From positions 1,399,780 to 1,463,779 of the forward strand of contig NZ_KE387185.1 in NCBI RefSeq assembly GCF_000430645.1: 64,000 nt of DNA, written 5' to 3'. Source of the DNA: Aquimarina latercula DSM 2041 (GTDB lineage Bacteria; Bacteroidota; Bacteroidia; Flavobacteriales; Flavobacteriaceae). Of the stretch, positions 16,877 to 33,268 are shown in pieces. A program made the position numbers and the translations under genes. How positions within the stretch are numbered: the first letter of the stretch is position 1; each line of letters opens with the position of its first letter. The notes below the pieces were generated by a model. That model ran no database searches. It was given only the letters and a program-made list of their open reading frames with translations, and was not told the DNA's origin.

Positions 16877-16883
16877 AGTATTG

Positions 16884-16970: not shown

Positions 16971-16976
16971 TTAAAG

Positions 16977-17803: not shown

Positions 17804-18379
17804 ATGAATTTAAGCGATTTTTCTTTAAAAAGCAAAAAAGTATTATATAAAACTATATTTGTATTTTTATCAATAATGACAGTACAAGACTTTTTAAATT
17901 GGTTCAGCAATCACCCTAATTTATTATTAGGTTATTTTGCAATTATTTTAGCGTGCACTTTAATCGGCTTACTTTTTGTAAAGCCGTCGAATTTTAAACC
18001 ACCTATTAATTATTTCTACGGAATTTTAATTTATGCGGTAACAATACCAGGCTTGTTATCTTTGGTTTTACTTCTTTATAGTTTTTTCTTTCTAAAAATT
18101 AATTTATTACAACTTGATTTGGTAACATACTTTGTTCCATTATTATTCATGATTGTAGCCTTAGTTATTATAAATAAAACGATCCCTATGTCTCGAATTC
18201 CTGGTTTCGGAAAGTTATCAGGACTATTCATAATTATTATAATAACGTTCATAATAACATATGTCCTACAGAGAATGTTTTTTGGTGTATTCTTCGTAGG
18301 AAGGTTTCAATATTTACTGTTGTTTTTCTTGGCTTTATTATTTGGGCTTAAAATAGCTTGGGACCGTATAGTAAAATGA
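17804..18379 (+). CDS. Integral membrane protein, unknown function
   Basis: A 191-aa protein with about five to six hydrophobic helices (for example LLLGYFAIILACTLIGLLF and IIIIITFIITYVLQRMF). No transporter or enzyme motif is recognised. It is on the plus strand 129 bases before the nine-gene run starting at 18509 and could belong to it, although a promoter-like motif (TAAATTTG at 18485-18492) lies between them. Confidence 0.7.
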   Translation: MNLSDFSLKSKKVLYKTIFVFLSIMTVQDFLNWFSNHPNLLLGYFAIILACTLIGLLFVKPSNFKPPINYFYGILIYAVTIPGLLSLVLLLYSFFFLKINLLQLDLVTYFVPLLFMIVALVIINKTIPMSRIPGFGKLSGLFIIIIITFIITYVLQRMFFGVFFVGRFQYLLLFFLALLFGLKIAWDRIVK

Positions 18380-18508: not shown

Positions 18509-19189
18509 ATGCTAAAAAATTTAAAGTCCTTATTTATAGTAGATGATTCTGAAGAAGAGAATAAAGAGACTTCTGGATCATCTGAAAAAGCTGATGTAAG
18601 TTCGGATAAAAAGCCAGCCGCTTCAACACCACCGCCGCTTCCTAATAATCCAATAAGTTCTTCCTCAGAAGGAGTTTTGGACACTAAAATCGTAGAAAAG
18701 TTATTACAAGCTATAGAGAAAAATAATCTAGATGGTTTTGATTATTTAGAATATAAAAAATCTCTAAAAGCGTTGGAGAAAATGCCAATGGATGAAGCGA
18801 CGAAATATCGTTCTGCATTTGCCACTGCATCAACAATGGGAGTTACCTTAGATAAGCTTTTACAAACTACTAATTTTTATATAGGAGTTTTAGATAAAGA
18901 AAATGAGCAGTTTATAGGCGCTTTTAAAAATCAATTTGACAGCAAGGTATCAGGTAGAGAAAGAGAGATTGCTCAGTTTGAATCAATCATAAAAGAAAAA
19001 TCAGAGCAAATTAAAAAGCTAACAGAAGAAATTGCGAAACACCAAAAACAGATTGGTGATTTAAAAGCTAAGGTAGAAGAGAGTAATAGTAAGATAAATA
19101 AAACACAAAATGATTTTAAAGTATCTTACAGTCATCTAAAAGCTCAGTTCGAAGAAGATATTGTTAAAATGCAGAAATACTTAAAATAA
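18509..19189 (+). CDS. Coiled-coil protein, first gene of the OmpA/ABC/AAA operon
   Basis: A 226-aa soluble protein with a disordered, proline-rich segment (PAASTPPPLPNNP) at about 36-50, a helical domain at about 60-130 (KALEKMPMDEATKYRSAFATASTMG) and a long coiled coil from about 145 to 220. The stop is directly followed by the ATG of the next gene, so the two are surely cotranslated. It is a likely adaptor for the membrane protein encoded next. Family not recognised. A TAAATTTG motif 17-24 bases before the start may be the -7 element, but no good -33 box is seen. Confidence 0.75.
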   Translation: MLKNLKSLFIVDDSEEENKETSGSSEKADVSSDKKPAASTPPPLPNNPISSSSEGVLDTKIVEKLLQAIEKNNLDGFDYLEYKKSLKALEKMPMDEATKYRSAFATASTMGVTLDKLLQTTNFYIGVLDKENEQFIGAFKNQFDSKVSGREREIAQFESIIKEKSEQIKKLTEEIAKHQKQIGDLKAKVEESNSKINKTQNDFKVSYSHLKAQFEEDIVKMQKYLK

Positions 19190-20203
19190 ATGGACAACAA
19201 CTCATTGAAACCAAAAACATTTTGGAAAAGACCCGAAGGTAAAACCGGGATGTTATTTATGGGACTTTTAGGAGCTGGTGGATTATACGGATTGTATAAA
19301 GTACTTCCCTTTCTAATTAATATTGTAGAAAATACATTATACCTAGGAGTTTTATTAGCTGTATTAGGGGCATTAATATATATTGTATTAGATCCTAAGA
19401 TGAGAAACCTTATTTTCTATATGTATAAATCTTTTATGCGTTGGTTAACAGGTCTTTTTATACAGATTGATCCGATAGGGATTCTTAAAAGTTATATTGA
19501 TGATCTTCATAGTAACTTAAAGAAGATGAATAAGCAAATTGCTGTTCTAAAAGGACAGATGAAACGTTTGCAAACCATTATATATGATAATAAGAAGAAT
19601 ATCAATAATAATCTAAAGCTAGCAAGTGCTGCAAAAGAAAGAGATAAGAAAGGGATTATGATTCTTAAATCTAGAAAAGCTGGTAGATTAAAAGAATCTA
19701 ATATGAAACTTGATGAACTTTATAAGAAGATGGAAATCTTATATAGAGTTTTAGTTAAGATGTACGAGAATTCAGAGATATTATTGGAAGATATAGAGGA
19801 TCAAGTGATGGTTAAGGAGCAAGAAAGAAAAGCAGTAAGAGCTGGACATTCTGCAATGAAATCTGCAATGAACATTATTGCAGGAAATAATGACAAGAAG
19901 GAAATGTTTGATCGCGCATTAGAAGCAATAGCTGATGATGTAAGTATGAAGATAGGAGAGATGGAGCGTTTTATGGAAATGTCTAATAACTTCATGGATT
20001 CTATTGATTTACAGAATGGAATATTCGAAGAAGAAGGTTTAGAATTACTTGAGAAATGGGAGAATGAAGGAGTTTCTCTTATTCTTGGAAATCAAAAAGA
20101 CCTGTTAGTGCATGATCAACATAGTGTAGATCTGGATGCACCTATAGTTAAAACTAAAACCCAAAATAATCAATACTCAGACTTATTTAATTTTGAGGAT
20201 TAA
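19190..20203 (+). CDS. Membrane-anchored coiled-coil protein
   Basis: A 337-aa protein with two hydrophobic helices at about 18-75 (LLGAGGLYGLYKVLPFLI, TLYLGVLLAVLGALIYIVL). A cytoplasmic helical region follows, with heptad character at about 100-205, a second helical stretch, and an acidic C-terminus. The long helical rod after a membrane anchor recalls PspA/TelA-like membrane stress proteins in shape only. It starts immediately after the previous stop and ends 22 bases before the binding-protein gene. Confidence 0.75.
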   Translation: MDNNSLKPKTFWKRPEGKTGMLFMGLLGAGGLYGLYKVLPFLINIVENTLYLGVLLAVLGALIYIVLDPKMRNLIFYMYKSFMRWLTGLFIQIDPIGILKSYIDDLHSNLKKMNKQIAVLKGQMKRLQTIIYDNKKNINNNLKLASAAKERDKKGIMILKSRKAGRLKESNMKLDELYKKMEILYRVLVKMYENSEILLEDIEDQVMVKEQERKAVRAGHSAMKSAMNIIAGNNDKKEMFDRALEAIADDVSMKIGEMERFMEMSNNFMDSIDLQNGIFEEEGLELLEKWENEGVSLILGNQKDLLVHDQHSVDLDAPIVKTKTQNNQYSDLFNFED

Positions 20204-20225
20204 AAAATAACACTAATCAAAAATC

Positions 20226-21779
20226 ATGGCAAAAGGAAGATTAACACCGTTTTCAAAAATTTTAATTGTAGTGCTCATTATTGGAGGACTATATTTTTTA
20301 CTAAATAAATTTGTAAGAAATAACCCAGAGGCTAAAGAAAAAATAGAAGAACTAACTTCTTCTTCTGATAAAGGAGAAACAAAAGAAGGATATAAAGATG
20401 TTATTAATGTAGGGGTAGTAACTTGGGGAGGATATGCTGGAGGACAGTATTTCAACGAAGGATTTAAAGCCAATACAGCATCGAGATTCTATAAAGATTA
20501 TGGATTTAAGGTAAACTTCGAAGTTATTGATGACTTTGATGCTTCTAGAGATGCATTTAAAAATGGTTCTATAGATCTAATGTGGGCAACAATTGATGCG
20601 TTCCCGACAGAAGTAGAAGGGTTATCGCAATACCAACCACAAGTTGTGTTCCAGGCAGATTGGAGTCGTGGAGGAGATGCTATTGTAGCAGCAAGAGGAA
20701 TTAATAAGGTCAGTGATCTTAGAGGTAAGAAAATAGCCGTAGCGCCAATGACACCATCACATTCTTTTTTAATTTGGTTATTGGAAGCTAGTGATATGAC
20801 GACCAAAGATGTTCAGTTGGTAGAAGTACCAAGTGCAATTGATGCTGCTGATTCTTTTAAAAGTAATACTGTTGATGCCGCTGTTGTTTGGAGTCCGGAT
20901 GATGCGGATTGTGTAGCAAAAGTAGCAGGTTCTAAAGTATTAGAAAGCACTAAGAATGCAACACATATTATTGCTGACGTATTTGTTTCTAAAAAAGAAT
21001 TTATAGAAACACATAAAGAGCAATTACAAGATTTATATGAAGGTTGGATGATTGGAGCTTCAGAATTAAACAATTCTGATAGCAATAAGAGAAAAGCGGC
21101 GAAGATACTTGCAGAAGGATTGTCGCAGCCAGAAGATTTCTGTTATGACGCTATAAATAATGTACGATTAGCTACTCATGGAGATAACAAAGATTTCTTT
21201 GGGTTGAACTCAAATTATACAGGTGTTACAGGAGAGGATTTGTATAATAAAATGAAAGTGAAATATAATAATCTTGGATATAGTACTGCTGGTGCAAAAA
21301 GTTGGAGATTACTTTCTACTAAGGATTTAGTAAATAAAACATCGCTATCTGGTGCTTCTCATAATGCCGAACAACAAAAGCAGTTTACTGCAGTTGATAA
21401 AACATTGGAGAAAAAAGAATCGCTTTCGTCAAAAAAAGTAAGTATTAGTTTTAGAACTGGAGAGTTTCAATTAGATGAAAATTCTAAACAATTAATAGAT
21501 CTTCAGTTTACGCCAATCGCAAAAGCATTTGCGAACGCACGTATTAGAATTGAAGGAAATACTGATAATGTTGGATCTAGAGGTCCTAATGTTGCACTAT
21601 CTAAGAAAAGAGCGCAATCAGTTGCAGATTATTTGATCCAGCAACACAGCATGCCAACGAACAGATTTATTATTTTAGGAAATGGTCCAGATAAACCAGT
21701 TCCTGGATGCGAAAGAAATCAAAATGCAGATTGTAAGTCTAAGAACAGAAGAACAGATTTTGAACTGGTAGTAGACTAA
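20226..21779 (+). CDS. ABC transporter substrate-binding protein fused to OmpA domain
   Basis: A 517-aa protein. The N-terminal helix (LIVVLIIGGLYFLLNKFV) is an anchor or signal. Residues about 60-330 are an NMT1/SsuA-like periplasmic binding fold (VINVGVVTWGGYAGGQYF, DLMWATIDAFP, SDLRGKKIAVAP, DAAVVWSPDDAD). Residues about 400-517 are an OmpA-like peptidoglycan-binding domain (RIEGNTDNVGS, LSKKRAQSVADYL). The fusion would tether the binding protein to the cell wall. The ligand class (sulfonate, nitrate or pyrimidine-like) cannot be chosen. Its stop overlaps the permease start by one base (TAATG). Confidence 0.9.
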   Translation: MAKGRLTPFSKILIVVLIIGGLYFLLNKFVRNNPEAKEKIEELTSSSDKGETKEGYKDVINVGVVTWGGYAGGQYFNEGFKANTASRFYKDYGFKVNFEVIDDFDASRDAFKNGSIDLMWATIDAFPTEVEGLSQYQPQVVFQADWSRGGDAIVAARGINKVSDLRGKKIAVAPMTPSHSFLIWLLEASDMTTKDVQLVEVPSAIDAADSFKSNTVDAAVVWSPDDADCVAKVAGSKVLESTKNATHIIADVFVSKKEFIETHKEQLQDLYEGWMIGASELNNSDSNKRKAAKILAEGLSQPEDFCYDAINNVRLATHGDNKDFFGLNSNYTGVTGEDLYNKMKVKYNNLGYSTAGAKSWRLLSTKDLVNKTSLSGASHNAEQQKQFTAVDKTLEKKESLSSKKVSISFRTGEFQLDENSKQLIDLQFTPIAKAFANARIRIEGNTDNVGSRGPNVALSKKRAQSVADYLIQQHSMPTNRFIILGNGPDKPVPGCERNQNADCKSKNRRTDFELVVD

Positions 21780-22747
21780 TGGTAGGGATTAAAAGACTGT
21801 TTGAACTTAGGGGAAACTTAGAATCAAAGGATAAAGCGATACTTACTGTAATCGGTGCTTTGATTCTAATTGGATTATGGTTTTTGTTAGCAGAAGTTTT
21901 ATCTACCTCTGTAATTACACAAGATGAATCGATAGATATTTCTAAGATTGCTCAAAATGAGCGTAAGTACTATGAAAATGATTCTCTTTTAGTTGCTAGT
22001 TACGATACTTTAGAACAAATGAGTCTTGAAGAACTGACATCATTTGGGTTAAAGAAAAATAAGGTGTATCCTTTGCTACCATCACCAATTAAGGTTATTA
22101 AAGCTTTTCCTGATCTGAATAAAAACGATGATGTAATCGGAAATACTTTTTATTCTATTAAATTAAACTTTTTAGGATATCTGGTAGCAATCCTTGTATC
22201 TATACCTATTGGTTTTTTATTAGGTTTGATTCCGTTATTCCGAGGATTATTTAGTCAGATTATAAACTCTTATCGTTTTATTCCGTTGACTGCGGTGACC
22301 GGGATTTTTATTATGTGGCTGGGATTGGGAAGTGATATGAAAGTATCTTTTCTAGCATTCGGTATTATAGTATATCTGATACCTGTCGTCATCCAGCGGA
22401 TTGATGAAGTCCAGAATGTATATCTTAATACTGTTTTTACCTTAGGAGCTACATCTTGGCAAACTATTAGAACAGTATATATTCCATATGTATTCTCTAA
22501 GATTATTGATGATATTAGGGTGTTAACAGCTATCTCTTGGACATATATCACTATTGTAGAGATGTTGAATAAAGGAGGAGGAATAGGAGAATTAATTTGG
22601 ACTGCGAAACGACAAAGTAGAATAGATAAAGCTTTTGCTATACTAATTATCATAGTGGTTATAGGGATATTACAAGATCGATTGTTTGTAATGATCGATA
22701 GAATATTATTTCCATATAAACACATAAATAAAGGAAACAAACATTAA
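21779..22747 (+). CDS. ABC transporter permease, SsuC/TauC-like
   Basis: A 322-aa permease. The first helix (AILTVIGALILIGLWFLLAEV) is followed by a periplasmic stretch of about 80 residues, longer than usual. The BPD core with about five helices comes next (LGYLVAILVSIPIGFLLGLIP, FIPLTAVTGIFIMWLGLG), including the coupling segment TLGATSWQTIRTVYIPYVFSKI. It pairs with the ATPase whose ATG starts two bases after this stop. Confidence 0.9.
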   Translation: MVGIKRLFELRGNLESKDKAILTVIGALILIGLWFLLAEVLSTSVITQDESIDISKIAQNERKYYENDSLLVASYDTLEQMSLEELTSFGLKKNKVYPLLPSPIKVIKAFPDLNKNDDVIGNTFYSIKLNFLGYLVAILVSIPIGFLLGLIPLFRGLFSQIINSYRFIPLTAVTGIFIMWLGLGSDMKVSFLAFGIIVYLIPVVIQRIDEVQNVYLNTVFTLGATSWQTIRTVYIPYVFSKIIDDIRVLTAISWTYITIVEMLNKGGGIGELIWTAKRQSRIDKAFAILIIIVVIGILQDRLFVMIDRILFPYKHINKGNKH

Positions 22748-22748
22748 T

Positions 22749-23558
22749 ATGGCATTACAGTTTACAGATACTCCTCAGGCTCCTAATGTTATAGAACTTA
22801 GAGGGATTTCTCAATCATACGATGGAGGAAAAACTAAAATTATAGAAAACTTAGATTTATTAGTAGAGGACAAACCAATGCAAGGACAGTTTTCTGTCAT
22901 TTTAGGAATGTCCGGATGTGGTAAGTCAACTTTACTGAGATATATTGCGGGATTGCAAGAGCCAACTGCAGGAACGGTGTTAGTCAAAGGGAAACCAGTA
23001 AGTAAAGAAAATAGGGTAAGCATGGTATTTCAGCAATATTCATCTTTGCCTTGGATGACTGTGTTGGATAATGTTGGTTTGGGGTTACGTTTTAAAGGTG
23101 TTTCTAAGAAAGAACGTGATGAAAAAGCGATGGAAATGATCCAGCTGGTTGGATTGGATGGGCACCAAAAGAAGTATGCACAATATCCTACATTATCTGG
23201 GGGACAATTACAGCGTGTAGCCATAGCTCGTAGTTTGATGTCTAATCCAGAAATTTTATTGATGGATGAGCCTTTTGGAGCACTTGATATTAAGACACGT
23301 TTACAAATGCAAGATTTACTAATCGGTATTTGGGAAAAGTTTAGCCCTACAATTTTATTTGTTACTCACGATATACAAGAAGCTGTGTACTTAGCAGATG
23401 ATATTTATATAATGAAACATGCGCCGTCTCATTTTGTTAAGCATATAGATGTTGATTTACCGTTTAATAGAAATAGAGAAACGAAGCGATTAGCTCATTT
23501 TGACGAATTGGTGCATCAAGTAGAAGATGCAATGATGCAGATTGATGCAGGGAGTTAA
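22749..23558 (+). CDS. ABC transporter ATP-binding protein, SsuB/TauB-like
   Basis: A 269-aa ATPase with Walker A GMSGCGKS (residues 53-60), Q-loop VFQQYSSLPW, signature LSGGQ (149-153), Walker B ILLMDEP (169-175) and H-loop VTHD. All catalytic residues are intact. It powers import by the adjacent permease and OmpA-fused binding protein. Confidence 0.95.
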   Translation: MALQFTDTPQAPNVIELRGISQSYDGGKTKIIENLDLLVEDKPMQGQFSVILGMSGCGKSTLLRYIAGLQEPTAGTVLVKGKPVSKENRVSMVFQQYSSLPWMTVLDNVGLGLRFKGVSKKERDEKAMEMIQLVGLDGHQKKYAQYPTLSGGQLQRVAIARSLMSNPEILLMDEPFGALDIKTRLQMQDLLIGIWEKFSPTILFVTHDIQEAVYLADDIYIMKHAPSHFVKHIDVDLPFNRNRETKRLAHFDELVHQVEDAMMQIDAGS

Positions 23559-23632
23559 TTCTTAATTTTAGTATTGCTTTATAGTTTTTAGTGATCTATA
23601 AACTATATTATAAAAACGAAAAAAAGGAAGAA

Positions 23633-24163
23633 ATGAGAAATATAATCAGTATTGTGCTAATTCTAGTATCATTTACAATTTTTGGAGTTCGAATCGCTAA
23701 AAAGATACAGTTTAAACAGAATGTTTCTGGATATTTAAAGAGAGCAGCAGATGCAAATACTATTGAACTTGCTCATGAAGAACTGACCAAAGTTATTGAT
23801 TATTTAGAAGCTAATAATATCACTAGTGGATATACTTCTATGATATGGGAAACCCCTGATGAAGATATTAGTTTTTGGTATAGAAATTTAAAAGCCAGTC
23901 AAGCTGAACTTCAAAATTTAAAATCTAATAGTGCTTTAGAACGGACTAATGTATTGATAAAACTACGAGAAACATTGGTAGATACTGGTAAAAGTACTAA
24001 AGTTACCGTGCCGAGAGGTTTAGCGGTTTATCCTAATAATGGATTGTGGGGGATTTTAATTTTAATAGCATTATTGTCCTTGTTTTTTAGTTTTATATTA
24101 TTTGCAATAGAATCCGAGAAAAAATCAAAAAAGAAGAAAGAACAACAATTATCATCATCCTAA
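23633..24163 (+). CDS. Membrane protein with two helices, unknown
   Basis: About 176 aa from the ATG at 23633, preceded by AAAAGGAAGAA; an upstream in-frame ATG at 23591 would add a charged tail before the first helix and is less likely. The helix ISIVLILVSFTIFGV at the N-terminus and ILILIALLSLFFSFILFAI near the C-terminus flank a periplasmic or cytosolic domain of about 110 residues. A Lys-rich tail follows. It sits between the ABC genes and the AAA+ gene. No family recognised. Confidence 0.7.
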   Translation: MRNIISIVLILVSFTIFGVRIAKKIQFKQNVSGYLKRAADANTIELAHEELTKVIDYLEANNITSGYTSMIWETPDEDISFWYRNLKASQAELQNLKSNSALERTNVLIKLRETLVDTGKSTKVTVPRGLAVYPNNGLWGILILIALLSLFFSFILFAIESEKKSKKKKEQQLSSS

Positions 24164-24184
24164 ATTAAATAGTGTAGGAGTATT

Positions 24185-26089
24185 ATGACCAATAGAAAAT
24201 ACCATAAAACCACAGATCATTTTTTTTCAAAATTAACTCAGGAACATAAAGCTTCTTTTTTTAAAGGAAAATCGGTTAATCCGTTAAAGATATTATCTAT
24301 TTCTTCTGCATTTCCAACGCTAAGAATAAAGGATGAAGATCTGTTAGTGTTATATTCTTTAAAAGATTCAATTGACGAATTAGATTTTATTATTACTACA
24401 CAACATATCCATCTTGCGGATAACAAGATTCCATTAGTTAAGGATGTGTTTCTAGATGTCAAGTTTAGTGCTTTTCCTAAGGAGCAGATTACGTTACTTA
24501 ATAATTTTGTAGATGATTTGTTATTAACTAAGAAAGATGAGAAAAAAAATCTTTCTGATTTTACCAATAAGTTTAAAGATTTCGTAAATCAAAAAGAAGA
24601 TACCACTCAAGATTTTGATATCGATTATGAGTTTCTACAAATTCTAAAAAACGAAGGAGAGAAGATTCAGAATTTGGCAGAAGACTTAAATAATAACAAG
24701 CGTTTTTCTAATACAATTAACGCTATCGTTCATAAAACAGATGATGCTATTGAGTTTAAGGCAGAACATGTAATTCTTCAGGATATCATTAGGGTATTCA
24801 ATATGATATATCCGTTGAGTGATAAAAAAAATACGGTTGCAGATGCTAAGGTGAAATTTTTATTAGCATTTATGTTCGAGAAGCTTCAGGGAAATGATAT
24901 TATAGCTTCTTTGTCTATAGAACGGATTAACAAATTTGTTCAATCAGAAAAGTTTGATGAAAACATAGAAGTAATTAAAACGGCTAGTCTTTTTGATTTA
25001 GGCAATGAATATAAGAATGAATTTTTATTACCGTCACTTTTAAAACGATTAGATAGCCAGCATTTTGCTAATTCTGCATCATTTTTATATAGAATAGCTT
25101 CTTTGATAACTAAAGCGGATGGGACAATTTCTGAGGAAGAGACAACCTTACTGAAGAAGATCAATAGTAAATTACAACATCCTAAAGAAAAATTAGAAGG
25201 AGTAAAGCAAACAGAGATCGATGAAAATGAAACGTTAGATGATGTAATGGATGAATTGAATGAGTTAATTGGTCTAGACAATATCAAAACTTCTGTAAAA
25301 GAATTATCTAACTTTTTAAAGGTACAAAAGCTACGAGAAGAAAAGGGTCTTAAGAATGTAAATAACTCATTACATTCGGTTTTTATGGGACCTCCGGGAA
25401 CTGGTAAAACAACAGTAGCACGTTTGGTGTCTAAAATATATAAACATTTAGGATATTTAGAAAAAGGACATCTTGTAGAAACAGATAGAACAGGAATGGT
25501 AGCTGGATATGTAGGTCAAACTGCATTAAAGGTAGAAGAGGTAGTAAAGACTTCGCTAGATGGAGTGTTGTTTATTGATGAAGCATATTCTCTGGCAAAG
25601 GATAATAAAAAGGATTTTGGTAATGAAGCTGTAGAGGTATTGCTAAAAAAGATGGAAGATCATCGAGATCAATTGGTTGTTATTGCTGCGGGATATCCAG
25701 ATGAGATGGAAGAATTTATAGAGTCGAACCCTGGATTACAATCACGATTTAATAGATACTTTACATTTGATCATTATAAGCCAAAAGAACTCATAGGTAT
25801 TTTTGAATTGTTTTGTGGCAAGAATGATTTTGTATTGGCAGATGAAGCAAAGGAAAAATTAGAGTTTATTTTTGATAAACTATACGAAAAAAGACATAAA
25901 AGTTTTGGTAATGCTAGAGTTGCTAGAAATTTGTTTGAAAAGATTATAGAATACCAAGCGAATCGTATTGTATCAATAACTCCACTTACCGAAGAATTAT
26001 TAAAGACAATCATAGAGGATGATATTCCACCGATTAATCAAACCGTAGATGATTATTTAAGATTTCAGAAGGACGAAGAAGAAGCTTAA
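24185..26089 (+). CDS. CbbX-type AAA+ ATPase with TerB-like region
   Basis: A 634-aa protein. Residues about 290-335 (FLYRIASLITKADGTISEEE) match the TerB tellurite-resistance core, including the ADGxISxEE metal-site pattern. The AAA+ domain follows at about 355-620: Walker A GPPGTGKTT (402-410), a GYVGQT pore-loop-like motif (441-446), Walker B VLFIDEA (461-467), and sensor regions GYPDEMEEF and LQSRF. Such ATPases remodel protein complexes (CbbX on Rubisco). The first 290 residues are unique and may bind the target. It is 12 bases ahead of the helicase gene. Confidence 0.9.
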   Translation: MTNRKYHKTTDHFFSKLTQEHKASFFKGKSVNPLKILSISSAFPTLRIKDEDLLVLYSLKDSIDELDFIITTQHIHLADNKIPLVKDVFLDVKFSAFPKEQITLLNNFVDDLLLTKKDEKKNLSDFTNKFKDFVNQKEDTTQDFDIDYEFLQILKNEGEKIQNLAEDLNNNKRFSNTINAIVHKTDDAIEFKAEHVILQDIIRVFNMIYPLSDKKNTVADAKVKFLLAFMFEKLQGNDIIASLSIERINKFVQSEKFDENIEVIKTASLFDLGNEYKNEFLLPSLLKRLDSQHFANSASFLYRIASLITKADGTISEEETTLLKKINSKLQHPKEKLEGVKQTEIDENETLDDVMDELNELIGLDNIKTSVKELSNFLKVQKLREEKGLKNVNNSLHSVFMGPPGTGKTTVARLVSKIYKHLGYLEKGHLVETDRTGMVAGYVGQTALKVEEVVKTSLDGVLFIDEAYSLAKDNKKDFGNEAVEVLLKKMEDHRDQLVVIAAGYPDEMEEFIESNPGLQSRFNRYFTFDHYKPKELIGIFELFCGKNDFVLADEAKEKLEFIFDKLYEKRHKSFGNARVARNLFEKIIEYQANRIVSITPLTEELLKTIIEDDIPPINQTVDDYLRFQKDEEEA

Positions 26090-26101
26090 TTTTAGTAGGA
26101 T

Positions 26102-28819
26102 ATGCATATAGAAAAAGTACTATCATACTATCAGGATTGTTATAAGCAAGAATTTAGAGATAATGATATATTAAATTTTTTAGGAACAAAAGTTCACAAG
26201 CGATTCTTTCTAAGTAGTATTGATCAGTTATATCGTGAAGATGATTCCGTCTTTATGAAAACAGATTTTGGAGAAGAGTTGTATAAGTATCTCGAGATCC
26301 ATAGAAAAGAAAAGACATTTGTTGCCTGTAGTTTTTTTATTACCGGAAAGCTAACTTTTTTAGGTAAAAAGAGAACAATATGTGCTCCCTTAATTATTAC
26401 TCCTGCGTCATTAGAAATTAATAATGAAGCATTATATCATATCAATTATAATTTTGAAGAAAATAGAGCTAATGATGCTTTGCTAAATTTATTAAAATCT
26501 AATTTTAATCTTGATGATTCGTTTGTCTTGGAGATGAAATCATTGATTAATGATCAGGATCCGGAAAAACAGGATATTCGCAAAGTTGCCAGAAAGCTAG
26601 GAGAGCATATAAAAATTGATACAATTGCCCTAGAAGATTTGCCTGAGCTTGTTTCGGGAGAGAAATTAAGAAGTCATTTAAAATCACCTTCATTAAAGTT
26701 ACTTCCCGCAATTGCTTTGGGTATTGTCGAGAAATCAAAATCCAGCAGAGATGTTTTACATGAAATCGATGAGATAAAGGAAAGACATTTATTTAATGAT
26801 ACACTTAGAAGTTTCTTTTCCAGAAGAAAAGTAGAAGTTGATAAAGAAACCAATTCGAAAGAAGCTGTATATGTACCTTCTAATCTTAGTGAGTCACAAT
26901 TAGATATTATTCAGGCCGTAAAATCAAATGATGTTACTGTAGTAATTGGTCCTCCAGGAACTGGTAAATCGTACACCATTGCTTCATTAGCTCTAGATCA
27001 AGTATATCATAATAAAAGTGTATTGATCTGTTCTAAATCCGATCAAGCAATAGATGTACTCCAAGATAAAATAATACAAGATTTAGGAGTAAAAGGTCTT
27101 TCTATTAGAGCAGGTTCTGGTAGAAGTCACCGTGCTACCTTAAGAAAGAAAATAGAATCAATTACTAGGTTTAGAAAATCTGGAGGAGATTTTTTTATTC
27201 CTAAAAAGCAAGCTGAAATTGATTATGCTAAAAATAAAATAAAGGAGATAAGCGAAGAAATACAAGAAAGAGAGGGTAGAGAAATTAAAAATGCTGAGCT
27301 GTTTTTGGATCACAAGCCTTCTTTTTTTAAAAGATTGAAGCGAAAATATGTTTCTAAAAAAGTATTAGAAGAATATCCTTTTTGGCAGCTAATAGAATTG
27401 TTGGATCATTATATTCACCAGAGAAATAAGCTGATTAAAGAAATCATTTCTTTAAAATACCAGGATAAGATTTCTAATTTATTACAAAAAGATCGAACTT
27501 TTTCTCAACTATTGAAGCTTGTAAAAACTAAGGATATTGTAGAAAGAGATCGCTTATTTCAGGATATTAATTTTATATCAGTATTACAATGCTTACCTAT
27601 TTGGATTACAAAGTCAACAGATGTTAGTGATGTGTTTCCTTTAGAAAATGATATTTTTGATGTAGCCATTATAGATGAAGCTTCTCAATGTGATATTACG
27701 ACAATGATTCCTGTATTGGCCAGAGCTAAAAAAGTGGTAGTCGTTGGTGATCCAAAACAACTAAGACATGTTTCTTTTTTATCTAGACAGGTAATGGAAA
27801 ATACTGCCAATAATTACGGTCTAATAAAGGGAGAGGATGTAATGAATTACAGGGAAACGAGTTTCTTAGATTATGCCATGGAACGACTTCCTTCTAACAA
27901 TAATATTCATTTTCTTGATGAACATTATCGCAGTGTCCCAAGTATTATCCGATATAGTAATCAGAGATTTTATTTTGATAAGCTAAAGGTAATGTCGGAT
28001 TTACAAATACATCATAAATCTTCTGCTATACATTGGATATTTTGTGAAGGCGAAAAACTAAAAGATGGGACTAACCTTAGCGAGGCTGACAAGATTTTAG
28101 AAGATGTACAACAAATAATTGATCAGGAAATTCAGGTTGCGGTTGGCGTAGCAACGACCATAGGTATTCTTTCTCCTTTTAGAGATCAGGTAAATTACCT
28201 AAAGAATAAGATAGAAGAATATGATCTTGCCGCGATAAAGAAACACAAAATAGCCGTTGGAACACCTTTCGAATTTCAAGGAGAGGAACGTGATCAAATG
28301 TATATCACATTTACCATTGATAACAACATAAGCAGTTCTGTTTTTCAATATTTAGATAGAGAAGATGTATTTAATGTAAGTATAACCCGTGCTAAACAAA
28401 AACAGTTTCTGTATTATTCTTTTGATCCTAAGAATTTTAAGAATAAACATTTATTAATTGATTACTTATCAGAGACTAGAATACATCATCAACATAATCG
28501 AGCGGAAGAATATATTGATAATTTCGCAACAGAAGTACACGAGGAATTGATTCAATTAGGAATCCAAGAACAAGATATTATTGTCAATTATTCATTAGCT
28601 GGATATATAATGGATATTTTAGTAACTTTTAACCAAAGAACGGTATGTATTGATTTGGTTGGATATCCAGGAACCTTAGAAAAAACGTTTTCCATAGAGC
28701 AATACAAAACACTATTTAGAACACAAATACCTATTATAACGATACCGTATGCTTACTGGTTACATAATAAGGAGGCATGTTTGGGTCATATTGCAAAGAA
28801 AGTTAGAATTAAGAAATGA
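26102..28819 (+). CDS. Superfamily 1 (Upf1/Dna2-like) helicase with C-terminal nuclease-like tail
   Basis: A 905-aa protein. Residues 1-250 are a unique N-terminal region. Helicase motifs follow: I GPPGTGKS (283-290), II IIDEASQCD, III VVVGDPKQLRHV, IV LDEHYRSVP, V GTPFEFQGEERD and VI NVSITRAKQ. An insert of about 150 residues lies between motifs Ia and II. The last about 110 residues (VHEELIQLGI, IVNYSLAGYIMDILV, RTVCIDLVGYPG) resemble the small REase-like domain found after such helicases, with D-x(10-12)-D-L-V in place of the usual E-x-K, so it may be inactive. It overlaps the next gene by four bases. Confidence 0.88.
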   Translation: MHIEKVLSYYQDCYKQEFRDNDILNFLGTKVHKRFFLSSIDQLYREDDSVFMKTDFGEELYKYLEIHRKEKTFVACSFFITGKLTFLGKKRTICAPLIITPASLEINNEALYHINYNFEENRANDALLNLLKSNFNLDDSFVLEMKSLINDQDPEKQDIRKVARKLGEHIKIDTIALEDLPELVSGEKLRSHLKSPSLKLLPAIALGIVEKSKSSRDVLHEIDEIKERHLFNDTLRSFFSRRKVEVDKETNSKEAVYVPSNLSESQLDIIQAVKSNDVTVVIGPPGTGKSYTIASLALDQVYHNKSVLICSKSDQAIDVLQDKIIQDLGVKGLSIRAGSGRSHRATLRKKIESITRFRKSGGDFFIPKKQAEIDYAKNKIKEISEEIQEREGREIKNAELFLDHKPSFFKRLKRKYVSKKVLEEYPFWQLIELLDHYIHQRNKLIKEIISLKYQDKISNLLQKDRTFSQLLKLVKTKDIVERDRLFQDINFISVLQCLPIWITKSTDVSDVFPLENDIFDVAIIDEASQCDITTMIPVLARAKKVVVVGDPKQLRHVSFLSRQVMENTANNYGLIKGEDVMNYRETSFLDYAMERLPSNNNIHFLDEHYRSVPSIIRYSNQRFYFDKLKVMSDLQIHHKSSAIHWIFCEGEKLKDGTNLSEADKILEDVQQIIDQEIQVAVGVATTIGILSPFRDQVNYLKNKIEEYDLAAIKKHKIAVGTPFEFQGEERDQMYITFTIDNNISSSVFQYLDREDVFNVSITRAKQKQFLYYSFDPKNFKNKHLLIDYLSETRIHHQHNRAEEYIDNFATEVHEELIQLGIQEQDIIVNYSLAGYIMDILVTFNQRTVCIDLVGYPGTLEKTFSIEQYKTLFRTQIPIITIPYAYWLHNKEACLGHIAKKVRIKK

Positions 28820-29724
28820 TTACTGAAAAAGAAATATCAAAGCAAATAGGCAGAACTATTAAATCACCTATTCGAGTTGGCAGTGTTGCTGACTTAAGAA
28901 TAGATGTAAGTTCTTTTTTGCATTTTTTTAGACCATTTTTTTCTCAATTACAAGATGATGTATATTTAGTAAGAAGCAAACAAATCACTTTTTTGAAGGC
29001 AAGTTTTTCTTCGGACTCGGATGCTATTGAGAAACTTCATAAACCTTACTTTGAAGGTACAAAGTCGATAGATGTTTTAGCATATTGGATACAGCAACTC
29101 GATGAGGGTCAAAAACAAGAATTTGATCGGTTATCTACAATAACAAGACAGCGTAATATAGCTACTTTTTTAATTGAAATTTGGGATGATCAGTATTTTG
29201 TAGAAAGAATAGTGGAACAAGGTTTTGAACAAGATGTTGATGATTTTAGAGTGTGGAAACGTGTTTTTAAACAGGCTAGTAGAAATGCTGTAGAGAACAA
29301 ATTGTTTTTTGAATTGTTAAAAAGAATGGCTGGTTTGGTAAAAAAGATTCATCCAGAGGTTAGAAAAATCCAGATCACCAGTCATTTTATGAGAACTATT
29401 TCTAAAGAAAAGATAAAAGGGGAAAATTCCCCAGAAGGAGTACATGAAGATGGTGCTCAGTATATCATGTCTGCTTTAGTGGTTAATAGACAAAACATAG
29501 TAGGTGCTGAGAGTCAGATTTATGAAAAAACAGATGCAAGTAACAATGAACTTATTTATAATAAAGTTTTAGATCCCGGAGAGTTTATTTTTCAGGCGGA
29601 TACAGGAGAGGAATTTACTTTCGGCAATGACCTTTGGCATTACGTAACTCCTATTGAACCAGAAGACATTTCAAAACCTGGAATACGAGATATTATTGGA
29701 TTTGATATGGATATTTTAGAGTAA
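28816..29724 (+). CDS. 2OG-Fe(II) dioxygenase family protein
   Basis: A 302-aa protein. The C-terminal half carries the iron-site pattern of the PF10014 group (amino-acid hydroxylases such as isoleucine dioxygenase): H-x-D in EGVHEDGAQYI, distal His in NDLWHYVTPI, and Arg in RDIIGFD for 2-oxoglutarate. The N-terminal about 150 residues are unusual for the group and helical. Its ATG overlaps the helicase stop (ATGA). The 3' end overlaps the convergent 434-aa gene by nine bases. The substrate is unknown; a protein or nucleotide target would fit the operon as well as a free amino acid. Confidence 0.82.
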   Translation: MITEKEISKQIGRTIKSPIRVGSVADLRIDVSSFLHFFRPFFSQLQDDVYLVRSKQITFLKASFSSDSDAIEKLHKPYFEGTKSIDVLAYWIQQLDEGQKQEFDRLSTITRQRNIATFLIEIWDDQYFVERIVEQGFEQDVDDFRVWKRVFKQASRNAVENKLFFELLKRMAGLVKKIHPEVRKIQITSHFMRTISKEKIKGENSPEGVHEDGAQYIMSALVVNRQNIVGAESQIYEKTDASNNELIYNKVLDPGEFIFQADTGEEFTFGNDLWHYVTPIEPEDISKPGIRDIIGFDMDILE

Positions 29725-31020
29725 CGATTCTCCAGTTGTCTCTTCTAGTATTTTTGATTCTTTTTCTATTTGTTTTTTGATAAGTTTAAAACTAGTCTTT
29801 TGATATAATTTGCGTAATTCATTTTTTCCTTCTACATCGAATTTATTGGCAAGTGTCTGAATACATATAATACCTAATGATCGAGATGTAGTACCATAAT
29901 TAGTACCTAATGTTACACCAAAACAGCGTTCTAAAATGGTTGTAATAAATTTGACACATTTTTGGTGTTTTCTAATACCAGCAAGAGATACTAAACCCTT
30001 TATTATGTCAATATTCTCTATATATACTTGTTCATAAGTGCCATATATATCATCCTTAGAATTGTAGACTTTATTTCTTAATGTAACGCTTCTTAGTTTT
30101 AGATAAGAAGATTTACGAATGATATTATATAGAAAAACATCAAATTTATTTTCGTCTGTATTATCAATACACGTATTGATTTGTTGTAGTGTATTTTGGT
30201 CGATTGTATCGCAAAGAATTTTTAGAATTTTAGAAAAATTATGTTGATATTTTTCATTCATGCCAGAAAGTAGTTTGTTTACATGTGTTCCGAATGAATC
30301 TGGTAATAATTGAAAAACATATGCCGAAGGAACTAAGCTTATTTTACTATTTTCTAGAATTATCCTATGAATAGTACTTTTAGCTTCCATATACTCTTTG
30401 ATAGGTAAGTATTGTATGGATTTAGAACGTAAAAAAGAATGTAAGCAAGTATTAAGTTCTGGACTTATTTTATGATCTGAAGAATATTTTTGTAGTTGGC
30501 GTAATAAAGGACGTAACGGATAATAGTAGGGATAAGTATTTTTCCATAGTTGAAAGAAATGCGTAAAATCTGTATTGTTCAATCTCATTTTGGAATTAAG
30601 AACAAGTTGACCAAGAGCGCGTTTAAAATTTTCGGGAATCTCTGATTTAGTTTCTATAAATCTTATGCGTTTTGATCGATCTTTTTGGGATATCTCTGGT
30701 GTGATAAAATAGAAAAACTGCTTTTTAATTTCTGGGTGTGATGTGATTAATTTTTTATAATGTTCTAATGAGTTAAAACCAATTTTATAAAGATCATTAT
30801 CCTCATAATTAGAGATCATTTTAGCTTCTTCATAGATGTCAAACAATAATTCTTCAATTTGAGATATATCTGTGTTAATACTATCCAAATCTATAATTTC
30901 TACAATTCTTTTTTCGTCAGTTAGTGTGTCAGAGTTAATGTGTACTAGTTCTTCTTCTGTTATTTGTAGAGGTTTTTTTAGTCCAAAGAACGATAGTATT
31001 TTATTGATATTATTAGGCAT
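29716..31020 (-). CDS. Hypothetical protein, 434 aa, paralogue 1
   Basis: A helical, soluble protein of 434 aa. It shares with its upstream neighbour the N-terminus (KILSFFGLK with an ITEEEL block) and the C-terminus (TSRSLGIICIQTLANKFD..GKNELRKLYQ). It looks like repeated alpha-helical pairs (HEAT-like by eye, not certain). No catalytic motif. Its 3' end overlaps the dioxygenase gene, and the pair lies back-to-back with the operon, so a shared role is possible. Confidence 0.7.
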   Translation of the reverse strand: MPNNINKILSFFGLKKPLQITEEELVHINSDTLTDEKRIVEIIDLDSINTDISQIEELLFDIYEEAKMISNYEDNDLYKIGFNSLEHYKKLITSHPEIKKQFFYFITPEISQKDRSKRIRFIETKSEIPENFKRALGQLVLNSKMRLNNTDFTHFFQLWKNTYPYYYPLRPLLRQLQKYSSDHKISPELNTCLHSFLRSKSIQYLPIKEYMEAKSTIHRIILENSKISLVPSAYVFQLLPDSFGTHVNKLLSGMNEKYQHNFSKILKILCDTIDQNTLQQINTCIDNTDENKFDVFLYNIIRKSSYLKLRSVTLRNKVYNSKDDIYGTYEQVYIENIDIIKGLVSLAGIRKHQKCVKFITTILERCFGVTLGTNYGTTSRSLGIICIQTLANKFDVEGKNELRKLYQKTSFKLIKKQIEKESKILEETTGESLL

Positions 31021-31039
31021 TAATGATGGTAAAACTATT

Positions 31040-32344
31040 TTATATTAGACCTATTCCATTACTTTCTTCCAGTATTTTCGAATACTTTAATATTTCATTC
31101 TTAATACCTTTATAGGTAGTTTCTTGATATAGTTTATTCAGTTCTTCCTTCCCTTTCTGATCGTATTGAAAAGCTAATGTGTATATACATAATTTCCCTA
31201 AAGATTGAGAAGTTTCTCCTAATCTAAGGGCTTTTGCATTAGAAAAAGAACGATTTATAATTTTTAAGAGATGAGGAATTAGACTTTTTTTATTATTAAA
31301 AGTCGCAAGTGATAAAATCATACTTTTTAAAATACTGATATTTTCTTTTTTTATGTATTGACAATTGTATTGAACTTCTAAACCAGAATTATAAGTAACT
31401 TTTTCGACTCTTAAATTACTCATCTTAGGTTTAAAGATAGAAGCTTTTTTTATAAATTCTATTATTTGCCTTTTGTAAACATTCTCACCAATTACATCTA
31501 TATGTTTTTGAACTAAAACGAGTAATTTAAATGGATTATAAAATTCTTTATTAGTCTCGAAAATTTTGAATATTATGCAATAAGCATCTTGTTCTTTTTG
31601 ATTACTATTTTTTAGAAATTTATTTATGTAATCAGCAAAAGGGTCTGAAACTAACAAAAATAAAGGGTGGTTTTCTTCTTTGTCGTTAGTATATGTATGG
31701 AGTATTTTCTGTATGGTATTTCTAGCAGTTTTGTAATAGGAATAGAAATGATTGTTAAACCTTGGGCTTTTTAGAAATATTTTTAGATAATTATAAAACT
31801 CTTCACTGATATCATCCTTTTTAGATTTTGCTCGTAACCTAGAGGTTATAGAACCTATTGTAACATAAGTAGGATATTCTACCCAAAGGTTCATAAAATA
31901 TTTAAAATCTTTTTCCTTAAAATGCAAGTTAGATCTTAATAATAGATTTAGCATTTCATCAAGGTACTGTCTTTTTAACCTATCTACAGAGGCTTCAGGA
32001 GTTGTTTCTAACTTAATAATTTCATTAGATATCCAATAAAGAAAATCCCTTTTAAAAGAAACCTGCTGTTCCGATAAAAATTTATAAGATTTTAAGCTTG
32101 TAAATTTTGGTGCCCAATAGTTATATCTATTGATTTTAAATTTTTCTGTAGCTTCTTTAAAAATAGTATCTGATAAAGCAGAAAAGCTATCTTTAAAGAA
32201 AGGAGTAGTATCTACGTTAATAGTATTTTCTTCTTGCTTACTTTTTTTATTACTAGAGTTATTAGTTATATCTTCTAATTCTTTTTTAGTAATCTCAAAC
32301 TTAGATTCCTTAATCCCAAAAAGAAAAGAAAGAATTTTACCCAT
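31040..32344 (-). CDS. Hypothetical protein, 434 aa, paralogue 2
   Basis: A tandem paralogue of exactly the same length as the downstream gene, starting MGKILSFLFGIKESKF. The conserved C-terminal block is LGETSQSLGKLCIYTLAFQYD. The middle is strongly diverged, so the duplication is old. A 19-base gap makes one transcript likely. No family recognised. Confidence 0.7.
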   Translation of the reverse strand: MGKILSFLFGIKESKFEITKKELEDITNNSSNKKSKQEENTINVDTTPFFKDSFSALSDTIFKEATEKFKINRYNYWAPKFTSLKSYKFLSEQQVSFKRDFLYWISNEIIKLETTPEASVDRLKRQYLDEMLNLLLRSNLHFKEKDFKYFMNLWVEYPTYVTIGSITSRLRAKSKKDDISEEFYNYLKIFLKSPRFNNHFYSYYKTARNTIQKILHTYTNDKEENHPLFLLVSDPFADYINKFLKNSNQKEQDAYCIIFKIFETNKEFYNPFKLLVLVQKHIDVIGENVYKRQIIEFIKKASIFKPKMSNLRVEKVTYNSGLEVQYNCQYIKKENISILKSMILSLATFNNKKSLIPHLLKIINRSFSNAKALRLGETSQSLGKLCIYTLAFQYDQKGKEELNKLYQETTYKGIKNEILKYSKILEESNGIGLI

Positions 32345-32383: not shown

Positions 32384-33268
32384 TTATGATAATACACAAC
32401 TAATATCATCCAAAGAAGAACCATAATCAAAACTAAAATCTATATGGACCAAATCTCCTGCTTTTACTTCTTGAGTATTGGTGGTTTTTAATACCGTCGG
32501 AGGCATTAAACTATCAGTACCTGTAAAATTAGAGCCTTCTGTCACTTCTACATAAGATTCTAAATACAGTGCATTTATAGTTCCTGAGAATAACACTGGA
32601 ACAGAAAAACTAAGTTTTACACCTTGTTTTTTTTCTTTTAATAATTCAATTTCGTTAACCAAAAACTGCTGAGTTAAAAACATAGGTTGATGTCTAGTAA
32701 AGTTAACCGGGTAATGATGCACATCCGAGTCGATCTCAGCTTCGCATAACCGTGCAAAATTTACAATTCGATTCGGAAACAATTTTCCTCCAGGTTTTAA
32801 GAAATCTCGCATATGCTGAAAAATCTGTACTTGAAATTCATTAGCACAGTAAATACTCATTAACTCACCAACAACAAAATCTACTTTTTCAGGTAAATCT
32901 ACAGTTAGCGCATCAGCATAGATTACTTCTACTTTATCCGCCCAAGGATATTTGGCAATTTCTTTATTGATAAAAGGAATCAGATCAGGATTGTTTTCAA
33001 TTAGATATGCTTTTTTTACAAAAGGCATGTATAGTTTAGTAAGTGGTAATGTTCCTACACCTATCTCGCAAACTATAGCGTCTTTAAAATTATTATTAAG
33101 CTGAAAAGCTTTATGAAAAGCATCTACTCGCTGTTTGTCAGTTTCCATAATCTTATAATAGATTTCTGGAAAACCAAAATGAGATTCATCAAAAGTTTGC
33201 GCTTTTAGTAAGCTATATTTTAACGCATCGTAATTATCAATTACCTCCTCAAATAATTTGTCTTTCAT
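32384..33268 (-). CDS. PRMT-like SAM-dependent methyltransferase
   Basis: A 294-aa class I methyltransferase. Motif I is VCEIGVGTLPLTKLY, the acidic post-I residues are LIENNPD, and motif III is FLKPGGKLFPNRI. Between them GELMSIYCANE resembles the double-E hairpin of protein arginine methyltransferases (SEWMGYxLxxE), and a beta-rich C-terminal domain follows, as in PRMTs. The target is unknown. A small-molecule or rRNA target is not excluded. It is 39 bases downstream of the 434-aa pair in the same direction. Confidence 0.75.
   Translation of the reverse strand: MKDKLFEEVIDNYDALKYSLLKAQTFDESHFGFPEIYYKIMETDKQRVDAFHKAFQLNNNFKDAIVCEIGVGTLPLTKLYMPFVKKAYLIENNPDLIPFINKEIAKYPWADKVEVIYADALTVDLPEKVDFVVGELMSIYCANEFQVQIFQHMRDFLKPGGKLFPNRIVNFARLCEAEIDSDVHHYPVNFTRHQPMFLTQQFLVNEIELLKEKKQGVKLSFSVPVLFSGTINALYLESYVEVTEGSNFTGTDSLMPPTVLKTTNTQEVKAGDLVHIDFSFDYGSSLDDISCVLS

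What the first reader, a model, noticed from the sequence alone, without database searches (positions are those of the whole stretch)
18509..29724. Nine-gene operon joining an OmpA-tethered ABC importer to AAA+, helicase and dioxygenase genes
Gene gaps are mostly 0-30 bases with stop/start overlaps, so the set is one transcription unit: two coiled-coil/membrane proteins, binding protein-OmpA fusion, permease, ATPase, two-helix membrane protein, TerB-like/CbbX AAA+, SF1 helicase and 2OG dioxygenase. Coupling a periplasmic sensor/importer to a remodelling ATPase and nucleic-acid enzymes is unusual for transport. It recalls Ter-type chemical stress systems (TerB plus associated enzymes) and could be a stress or defence system of undescribed type.
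Basis: partly seen in the sequence, partly recalled or inferred. Interest (0 to 1): 0.75.

Follow-up and report, generated by a model that had tools for sequence, protein, structure and literature searches.

The report
Peptidoglycan-tethered membrane-remodelling island in Aquimarina
A marine bacterium carries a movable set of genes that looks like a cell-envelope machine, with a sensor tied to the cell wall, a transporter, a possible membrane-bending protein and an ATP-driven remodeller, into which possible defence genes are swapped; the core kind had been predicted before, but a further closely tied part and its mobility are new here.

Summary
The nine genes are real, at the stated coordinates and head to tail, but not equal partners. 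Core: g1-g5 and g7 (coiled coil; membrane-anchored PspA/ESCRT-III-like helical protein; SBP-OmpA fusion; permease; ATPase; CbbX-like AAA+). Two parts were missed: g0 (17804-18379, five-helix membrane protein) and g12 (32384-33268, minus strand, PRMT5-like methyltransferase).

Of 66 Aquimarina genomes 20 carry this type 1 and 13 a divergent type 2; none has both. g0 is in 32 of these 33 and 0 of the other 33. g9 and g12 are in 18 of 20 type-1 carriers only. One strain pair shows the empty site: g0-g12 moves as a unit. g6 and helicase g8 are optional; one slot elsewhere holds a Schlafen/AlbA gene or candidate defence pair PDC-M21.

PspA/Snf7-TM + AAA+ + ABC + PBPB-OmpA operons were already described (Ravi 2024), so this is a new variant of a known, untested kind. 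Best reading: ATP-driven membrane remodelling coupled to periplasmic sensing or uptake; the PspA identity rests on a weak model. Defence is possible, not shown.

The parts
   Evidence: 32 of 66 Aquimarina genomes = 19 of 20 type-1 + 13 of 13 type-2 carriers, 0 of 33 others; 7 strong hits in 395 phylum genomes, all 7 in genomes with a g2-type protein
18509..19189 (+). g1: soluble coiled-coil protein; disordered N-terminus, three short helices, about 110-residue coiled coil
   Evidence: type-2 counterpart hhalign probability 98.6, E 5e-15
19190..20203 (+). g2: membrane-anchored helical protein (hydrophobic segment at 38-56 within N-terminal helices, then 55+75-residue hairpin, then two helices), PspA/Vipp1/ESCRT-III-like topology in a weak model
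   Evidence: highest mean identity of the genes compared, 93.8% over 19 loci
20226..21779 (+). g3: N-terminal membrane anchor, NMT1/SsuA-type solute-binding domain, C-terminal OmpA peptidoglycan-binding domain
21779..22747 (+). g4: ABC permease (BPD_transp_1)
22749..23558 (+). g5: ABC ATPase (taurine/nitrate/sulfonate type)
23591..24163 (+). g6: optional two-helix membrane protein in variable slot A (start perhaps 23633)
   Evidence: 7 of 18 complete Aquimarina type-1 loci, window included; absent from near-identical G026
24185..26089 (+). g7: AAA+ ATPase of the CbbX/SpoVK/EccA kind with a 350-residue N-terminal region (weak TerB resemblance)
   Evidence: in 20 of 20 type-1 carriers
26102..28819 (+). 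g8: optional SF1 Upf1-like helicase in slot B
   Evidence: 13 of 18 complete Aquimarina type-1 loci, window included
28816..29724 (+). g9: 2-oxoglutarate/Fe(II) oxygenase (PF10014); HxD at 210 and His 275 in 19 of 19
   Evidence: 18 of 66 genomes at E 1e-10, all type-1 carriers
29716..31020 (-). g10: unknown 434-aa protein, convergent with g9; g10/g11-type genes occur exactly with g8 in the 19 loci compared
31040..32344 (-). g11: paralogue of g10
32384..33268 (-). g12: PRMT5-like SAM methyltransferase, right-hand end of the movable unit
   Evidence: 18 of 66 genomes at E 1e-40, all type-1 carriers; PF05185 6e-8; empty site

Best explanation
A horizontally moved envelope machine. In the periplasm g3 is held between the inner membrane (N-terminal anchor) and peptidoglycan (OmpA domain); its solute-binding domain captures a small ligand and hands it to, or reports it through, the ABC transporter g4/g5. 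On the cytoplasmic side g2, a membrane-anchored PspA/ESCRT-III-like coiled coil, polymerises with g1 and the membrane protein g0. The CbbX-like AAA+ g7 remodels or disassembles that polymer, as Vps4 does for ESCRT-III. In type 1, g9 (oxygenase) and g12 (methyltransferase) modify a metabolite or protein of the pathway. g6, g8 with g10/g11, and other genes in the slots are accessory cargo. Shown here: gene content, order, co-occurrence, mobility of the unit, optional status of g6 and g8. Inferred: polymerisation, remodelling by g7, ligand sensing, the roles of g9 and g12, and the outcome (membrane repair or adaptation under envelope stress).
For: Same core in order in 18 of 18 complete Aquimarina type-1 loci (17 fetched plus the window) and in another genus. 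A divergent version (g2-like protein about 20% identical) keeps g7, g1, g2-like, SBP-OmpA, permease and ATPase in 13 of 13 loci. g0 tracks the union of both types, 32 of 33 carriers against 0 of 33 others, even where it lies on another contig (G019) or about 21 kb away (G032); 7 strong g0 hits in 395 phylum genomes all lie in genomes with a g2-type protein. Empty site in G463. g2 model: Foldseek ranks 1-7 are Vipp1 or Asgard ESCRT-III; best VIA hit E. coli PspA 4whe, Z 13.1, 122 residues, 2.2 A. g7 has intact Walker A and B and its closest solved relatives by sequence are CbbX. Ravi 2024 independently proposed PspA/Snf7-TM + AAA+ + ABC + PBPB-OmpA for ATP-dependent remodelling linked to transport.
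Against: g2 has no significant sequence match to PspA_IM30 or Snf7 (PspA_IM30 in 1 of 11 members, E 0.096). Its model is weak (pLDDT 55). No Foldseek match reaches E 0.001; the best is 0.017, with query TM-scores of 0.16-0.39 in ranks 1-7, and unrelated long-helix hairpins (IpaB, BAR domains) tie in Z. g1 gave no fold match. 11 of 14 strong g2 loci in other families have no SBP-OmpA gene within the 20 kb read. No substrate is known. 33 of 66 Aquimarina genomes (27 of them at least 90% complete) gave no hit for either type.
Confidence: 0.5

Rival explanations
1. Anti-phage defence platform: the envelope machine senses phage adsorption, DNA entry or membrane damage, and the slot genes (helicase, Schlafen/AlbA, PDC-M21) are exchangeable effectors.
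For: Patchy and repeatedly gained, lost or swapped (7 changes of type 1 and 8 of type 2 against all other rows of the rpoB tree); empty site; slot A holds PADLOC candidate pair PDC-M21A/B in G472 (157 and 154 bits, read in L041) and an SLFN_AlbA_2 gene in G029 (read in L036); g8 partly matches MkoC, PDC-S37 and other defence helicases; slot turnover between near-identical strains.
Against: No core gene is a known defence protein over its length; 9 of 18 complete Aquimarina type-1 loci have no slot-A ORF of 90 aa or more and 5 of 18 no helicase; 9 type-2 proteins gave only weak generic AAA+ and HD-domain PADLOC matches; both types are clustered on the tree, not scattered (3 and 5 of 500 shuffles as low); importer and SBP have no obvious defence role.
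Confidence: 0.2
2. Dedicated uptake system for a sulfonate/taurine/nitrate/urea-like solute, with g2/g7 as quality control and g9/g12 as catabolic or modifying enzymes.
For: SBP, permease and ATPase all match the SsuA/Tau/nitrate group; g4 and g5 are still present, adjacent to each other, elsewhere in the 6 MAGs where they are unlinked from g3; in one f19 genome g1-g2 are followed by chromate, phosphate and sulfate transporter genes.
Against: Does not explain why the helical membrane protein, AAA+ and peptidoglycan tether are kept with it; 11 of 14 strong g2 loci in other families have no SBP-OmpA gene within the 20 kb read, g1 being beside g2 in 7 of these 11 (the rest of those genomes was not searched for g3).
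Confidence: 0.2
3. Ter-type chemical stress system (tellurite, oxidants).
For: A D-G-x-I-x-x-x-E stretch in g7 resembles TerB (the resemblance of the motif is recalled); 5 of 12 family members match TerB at E up to 1, best 0.0048.
Against: Window protein 13.3-13.8 bits against a cut-off of 24.4; no TerC, TerD or TelA match among the 13 proteins g0-g12.
Confidence: 0.05

Closest known systems
PspA/Snf7-with-TM + AAA+ + ABC ATPase + permease + PBPB-OmpA operons (Ravi et al. 2024, PMC11237479, example OGG56892.1)
   Same: [quoted passage not shown] same proposed logic (section 18 read)
   Different: AAA+ here is CbbX/SpoVK-like with a single AAA+ domain and a long N-terminal region; separate PspA and Snf7 genes were not recognised by sequence; the terms helicase and dioxygenase do not occur in the main text; g0, g12 and slots were not seen in the passages read; supplements not read, OGG56892.1 not compared
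PspA/Vipp1/ESCRT-III with Vps4
   Same: Hairpin plus additional helices, membrane contact, partner AAA+
   Different: g2 carries its own hydrophobic N-terminal helices and lacks a significant sequence match; AAA+ is nearest to another clade (CbbX/SpoVK)
CbbX (Rubisco activase), SpoVK, EccA
   Same: AAA+ module and lid, Walker motifs
   Different: Scores below the curated NCBIfam cut-offs; 350-residue N-terminal region; no Rubisco or ESX match among the 13 proteins g0-g12
SsuABC/TauABC/NrtABCD importers
   Same: SBP, permease, ATPase of this group
   Different: SBP is membrane-anchored and fused to OmpA; bit scores far below equivalog cut-offs
Ter-dependent stress systems
   Same: Weak TerB-like stretch
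   Different: Ter genes not found among g0-g12; TerB below cut-off

Membership tests
PspA/Snf7-TM + AAA+ + ABC + PBPB-OmpA operon (Ravi 2024) | SBP (PBPB)-OmpA fusion gene in the operon | tested here: met
   OmpA 8e-16, NMT1_2 1e-11 in one 517-aa protein
PspA/Snf7-TM + AAA+ + ABC + PBPB-OmpA operon (Ravi 2024) | ABC ATPase and permease in the operon | tested here: met
PspA/Snf7-TM + AAA+ + ABC + PBPB-OmpA operon (Ravi 2024) | AAA+ ATPase in the operon | tested here: met
   all 20 type-1 carriers
PspA/Snf7-TM + AAA+ + ABC + PBPB-OmpA operon (Ravi 2024) | PspA/Snf7 homologue with a TM segment | tested here: inconclusive
   hydrophobic N-terminus and ESCRT-III-like topology but no significant sequence match
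PspA/Vipp1/ESCRT-III superfamily | Sequence profile match (PF04012 or Snf7) | tested here: inconclusive
   PF04012 in 1 of 11 members at E 0.096, under its cut-off; Snf7 not among the families listed
PspA/Vipp1/ESCRT-III superfamily | Helical hairpin plus further helices, superposable on PspA/Vipp1 | tested here: inconclusive
   Best hits PspA/Vipp1, but weak model, no Foldseek E under 0.001, and unrelated hairpins tie
PspA/Vipp1/ESCRT-III superfamily | Polymerisation and membrane remodelling | not testable with these tools
   needs biochemistry
CbbX/SpoVK-type AAA+ | AAA+ core with Walker A and B and AAA_lid_6 | tested here: met
CbbX/SpoVK-type AAA+ | Curated equivalog cut-off of CbbX, SpoVK or EccA | tested here: not met
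   237.5/459, 280.7/423, 247.8/467 bits: a relative, not one of these equivalogs
Ter system | TerB domain | tested here: inconclusive
   below cut-off in the window protein
Ter system | TerC, TerD or TelA genes beside it | tested here: not met
   no such match among 13 proteins, g0-g12; genes further away were not scanned
Anti-phage defence system | Core proteins match known defence families over their length | tested here: not met
   only partial or generic ATPase/helicase/OmpA/methyltransferase matches
Anti-phage defence system | Protection against phage | not testable with these tools
   needs plaque assays

The most novel reading that the evidence does not exclude
A modular envelope-surveillance immune platform. 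A peptidoglycan-tethered solute-binding sensor, a five-helix membrane subunit (g0) and a PspA/ESCRT-III-like polymer worked by an AAA+ form a fixed detection and membrane-sealing module. Two mutually exclusive versions of it are swapped between strains, and interchangeable nucleic-acid effectors (helicase with g10/g11, Schlafen/AlbA, PDC-M21, others) are plugged into two slots of its operon.
Probability: 0.15. Interest if true: 0.85.

Novelty: new variant of a known kind. Interest (0 to 1): 0.56.

Why it matters
How bacterial PspA homologues without an associated AAA ATPase regulate assembly is stated as unknown in Ravi 2024. This island gives a compact, naturally gained-and-lost system with its own AAA+, a cell-wall-tethered sensor and a closely tied new membrane subunit. 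A strain pair with and without it exists (G004/G463), so function can be tested by comparison and by deletion. If the slot genes prove to be effectors, it would connect envelope stress sensing with immunity.

Tried and rejected
Plasmid transfer: g2 matched none of 72,556 plasmid records (tblastn, E up to 0.01); g3 matched 332 records, 0 of them over 80% of the query; the 20 listed were SBP-only matches.

Idea that g10/g11 are relatives of the DUF4132 protein found in 6 of 13 type-2 loci: rejected, hhalign probability 0.3, E 0.23.

Idea that g8 and g10/g11 came as a block replacing g9: the g9 tree does not split by presence of g8, and G004 (no g8) and G020 (g8) remain sisters.

Idea that the MAGs with unlinked g1-g3 lost the transporter: rejected, g4 homologues at 50-56% lie elsewhere, beside g5, in the 6 genomes concerned.

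Sequence proof of PspA membership: not obtained. Fold of g1: no match under E 0.6. Promoter scan: 77 sites found against 84.8 expected, no use. Paper searches for a TerB/TelA link, for CbbX with PspA, for SBP-OmpA fusions, for Aquimarina defence islands and for phage-shock with defence showed in their listings nothing on this operon beyond Ravi 2024, which also came up; of the other papers I saw listings and abstract beginnings only.

Rows dropped before counts: G449 (E 7e-4 over 42 residues of g2), leaving 20 of 66 carriers; G146 and G401 (E about 1e-5 in g2) and G110 (E 9e-4 in g0, with stops) were not treated as homologues; L116 and L117 (contig ends) were left out of the 18 + 1 complete loci; L057 and L059 end in g3 and after g1, and L055 has g1 only; G013, G021 and G461 have no rpoB hit and are not on the tree.

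Limits: g12 was sought at E 1e-40 and g9 and g7 at 1e-10, so divergent relatives elsewhere could be missed; profile searches score only part of the first-look candidates; 6 of the 33 Aquimarina genomes without either type are under 90% complete.
Full report
WHAT IS THERE. The window lies in an Aquimarina-like genome (G000:C1:1399780-1463779; genus inferred from the best named relatives). I call the genes g0 to g12 in window order. The nine ORFs of the finding (g1-g9) start and stop exactly as stated and lie head to tail with gaps of 32 bases or less or short overlaps. Pfam/NCBIfam: g3 = NMT1/SsuA-type SBP + OmpA; g4 permease; g5 ATPase; g7 AAA + AAA_lid_6 closest to SpoVK/EccA/CbbX; g8 SF1 helicase; g9 2OG-Fe oxygenase; g1, g2 and g6 have no family above its cut-off. 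g3 has an N-terminal hydrophobic anchor at residues 4-31, so it should sit between inner membrane and peptidoglycan.

CONSERVATION IN NAMED GENOMES. A scan with g1 gave 29 loci. g1-g2-g3-g4-g5-g7 occur in order in all 16 Aquimarina and both Tenacibaculum loci, although g7 is broken and cut by a contig end in one (L045). Of 11 Saprospiraceae/Bacteroidota MAG loci, 9 hold g1-g2-g3 in order; of these, 2 have g4-g5 next, 6 do not, and 1 ends in g3. In the 6 without, g4 (50-56% identity) lies elsewhere in the genome, beside g5 at 67-74%.

WITHIN THE GENUS. A g2 profile hit 21 of 66 Aquimarina genomes; one marginal hit (G449) was dropped, leaving 20. g7 is in all 20. g9 is in 18 of 66 at E 1e-10 and g12 in 18 of 66 at E 1e-40: both are the 20 minus G013 and G465, whose loci run into contig ends. 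In the Flavobacteriaceae sample 4 of 397 genomes have g2, two of them in other genera; L115 (G628) has g0-g5, g7, g9 and g12, without g8.

A SECOND FORM. The g7 search also found 13 Aquimarina genomes with a g7 relative of 486-506 aa. In 13 of 13 of these loci there are also a g1-like protein (26-32% identity; family hhalign probability 98.6, E 5e-15), a 372-373-aa protein with g2-like layout (hhalign probability only 65, P 8e-6, full length), a 604-aa SBP-OmpA, permease and ATPase. They gave no g9 or g12 hit at the thresholds used. No genome has both types (0 of 66; hypergeometric P 0.005 ignoring kinship). On an rpoB tree of 63 genomes (3 had no usable rpoB) type 1 needs 7 changes and type 2 needs 8 against all other rows; counted only against the other type, 6 each, of which well-supported branches force 5. 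Type-1 carriers G004 and G020 sit inside a group of type-2 carriers. Against free movement: both labels are still clustered on the tree (3 and 5 of 500 shuffles as low). The test of exclusivity by independent pairs is too small to be significant (median p 0.25), so exclusivity is suggestive, not proven.

A MISSED PART. g0 (17804-18379), five hydrophobic segments and no Pfam match, occurs in 32 of 66 genomes: 19 of 20 type-1 and 13 of 13 type-2 carriers, and 0 of the 33 genomes with neither. The one carrier without it, G013, is 78% complete with a cut locus. In G019 g0 is on another contig and in G032 about 21 kb from the locus, so this is not mere linkage. In 395 phylum genomes a g0 profile gave 8 hits. 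Seven are strong: six are in genomes with a strong g2 hit (11 such genomes) and the seventh (G243) lies beside a type-2-like g2 (E 1e-83). The eighth (G110, E 9e-4, with stops) I do not count. Fisher P 6e-10 for 6 of 11 against 1 of 384 ignores kinship. Five of the 11 strong g2 genomes have no g0 hit, so the dependence runs from g0 to g2.

THE UNIT MOVES. G004 carries type 1; in G463, its sister on the rpoB tree, the two flanks lie 5 bases apart (G004:C5 155603 and 165295 map to L216 4183 and 4177). The extra DNA in G004, about 9.7 kb, runs from before g0 (155789) to after g12 (165218). Two other genomes (G001, G480, close kin of each other) have a different insert of about 12.2 kb there. This defines the unit as g0-g12 in that pair. 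In the window strain it sits beside a tRNA cluster. No integrase was seen among the proteins annotated; it was not searched for separately.

VARIABLE SLOTS. Among 18 complete Aquimarina type-1 loci (17 fetched + window), the g5-g7 slot holds g6 in 7, no ORF of 90 aa or more in 9, an SLFN_AlbA_2 gene in 1 (G029) and a two-gene cassette in 1 (G472) that matches PADLOC PDC-M21A/B at 157 and 154 bits (read in named loci L036 and L041). The near-identical strain G026 has 114 bases with a palindromic repeat in place of g6. g8 is in 13 of 18; a g10/g11-type gene is in all 13 and in none of the 5 without g8, nor in L115. g8 presence needs 4 changes on the tree. So g8 and g10/g11, which flank g9 on opposite strands, are a linked accessory pair. 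Gene trees of g3, g7, g9 and g12 were compared by eye only: close pairs such as G004/G020, G009/G457 and G000/G026 hold in all four, while G459, G470 and G478 change place; no congruence test was run.

WHAT g2 IS. The AlphaFold model is weak (pLDDT 55, hairpin part up to 83) but shows N-terminal helices, then a 55+75-residue hairpin, then two helices. By hydropathy one segment (38-56) passes in the window protein and two in a type-2 one. Foldseek against the PDB ranks Vipp1 and Asgard ESCRT-III first to seventh (probability 0.82-1.00), but no match reaches E 0.001 and the best is 0.017. VIA-align puts E. coli PspA first (Z 13.1, 122 residues, 2.2 A), tied with unrelated helical hairpins. Sequence profiles do not reach PspA. 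The g1 model, also helical, showed no Vipp1 or PspA among its 50 listed matches. I therefore say PspA/ESCRT-III-like, not member.

PRIOR WORK. Ravi et al. 2024 (PMC11237479; section 18 read in full, other passages by search) describe PspA and Snf7 homologues with a TM segment, an AAA+, ABC ATPase, permease and a PBPB-OmpA protein in longer operons, and propose ATP-dependent membrane remodelling linked to solute transport. The core kind is thus in print. The main text has no occurrence of helicase or dioxygenase; supplements were not readable here. Not found in the passages read or in the searches, so new as far as I can tell: g0 as closely tied partner, two alternative forms, movable unit with empty site, g9/g12 as type-1 parts, and the slots.

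HOW IT MAY WORK. Shown: content, order, co-occurrence, mobility. Inferred: g3 senses or delivers a solute at the cell wall; g1/g2/g0 form a membrane-bound coat; g7 (Walker A at 402, Walker B at 462) remodels it, perhaps by the g2 C-terminal tail, which has invariant residues across the 15 aligned relatives; g9 (HxD and distal His in 19 of 19) and g12 modify a product. Whether the outcome is envelope repair, uptake or immunity is open; slot contents and patchiness keep immunity alive, while the lack of known defence families in the core argues caution.

Noticed in passing
window 14324-17049: 15 tRNA genes on the minus strand (13 of them from 15458 on) upstream of g0; possible integration neighbourhood.
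   Followed up: no
window 29716-32344: Paralogous pair g10/g11 of unknown family, convergent with and overlapping the end of g9; such genes occur exactly where the helicase g8 occurs in the 19 loci compared.
   Followed up: partly
L102:6846-6959: REP-like palindrome in place of the g6 cassette of a near-identical strain.
   Followed up: no
L081:6238-12317: A g1-g2 pair followed by chromate-transporter, Na/phosphate and Na/sulfate symporter genes; hints at oxyanion transport partners for g1-g2.
   Followed up: no
L090:6262-14417: g2 and SBP-OmpA followed by ATPase, sigma-54 response regulator and histidine kinase genes in another family: a possible signalling output.
   Followed up: no
L128, L130, L133, L134, L137, L139: Protein of one cluster on the opposite strand between g7 and g1 in 6 of 13 type-2 loci; the L134 member has DUF4132 and HEAT matches, and L133 also has an LRR-WGR gene whose cluster recurs in L137.
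   Followed up: partly
L110:3996-4232: Fragment of a second g9 copy in G472, with two further unknown ORFs between it and g9: a scar of rearrangement.
   Followed up: no
L217:1109-13081: At the site that holds type 1 in G004, two other genomes carry an insert of about 12.2 kb with several large ORFs, so the site is reused.
   Followed up: no
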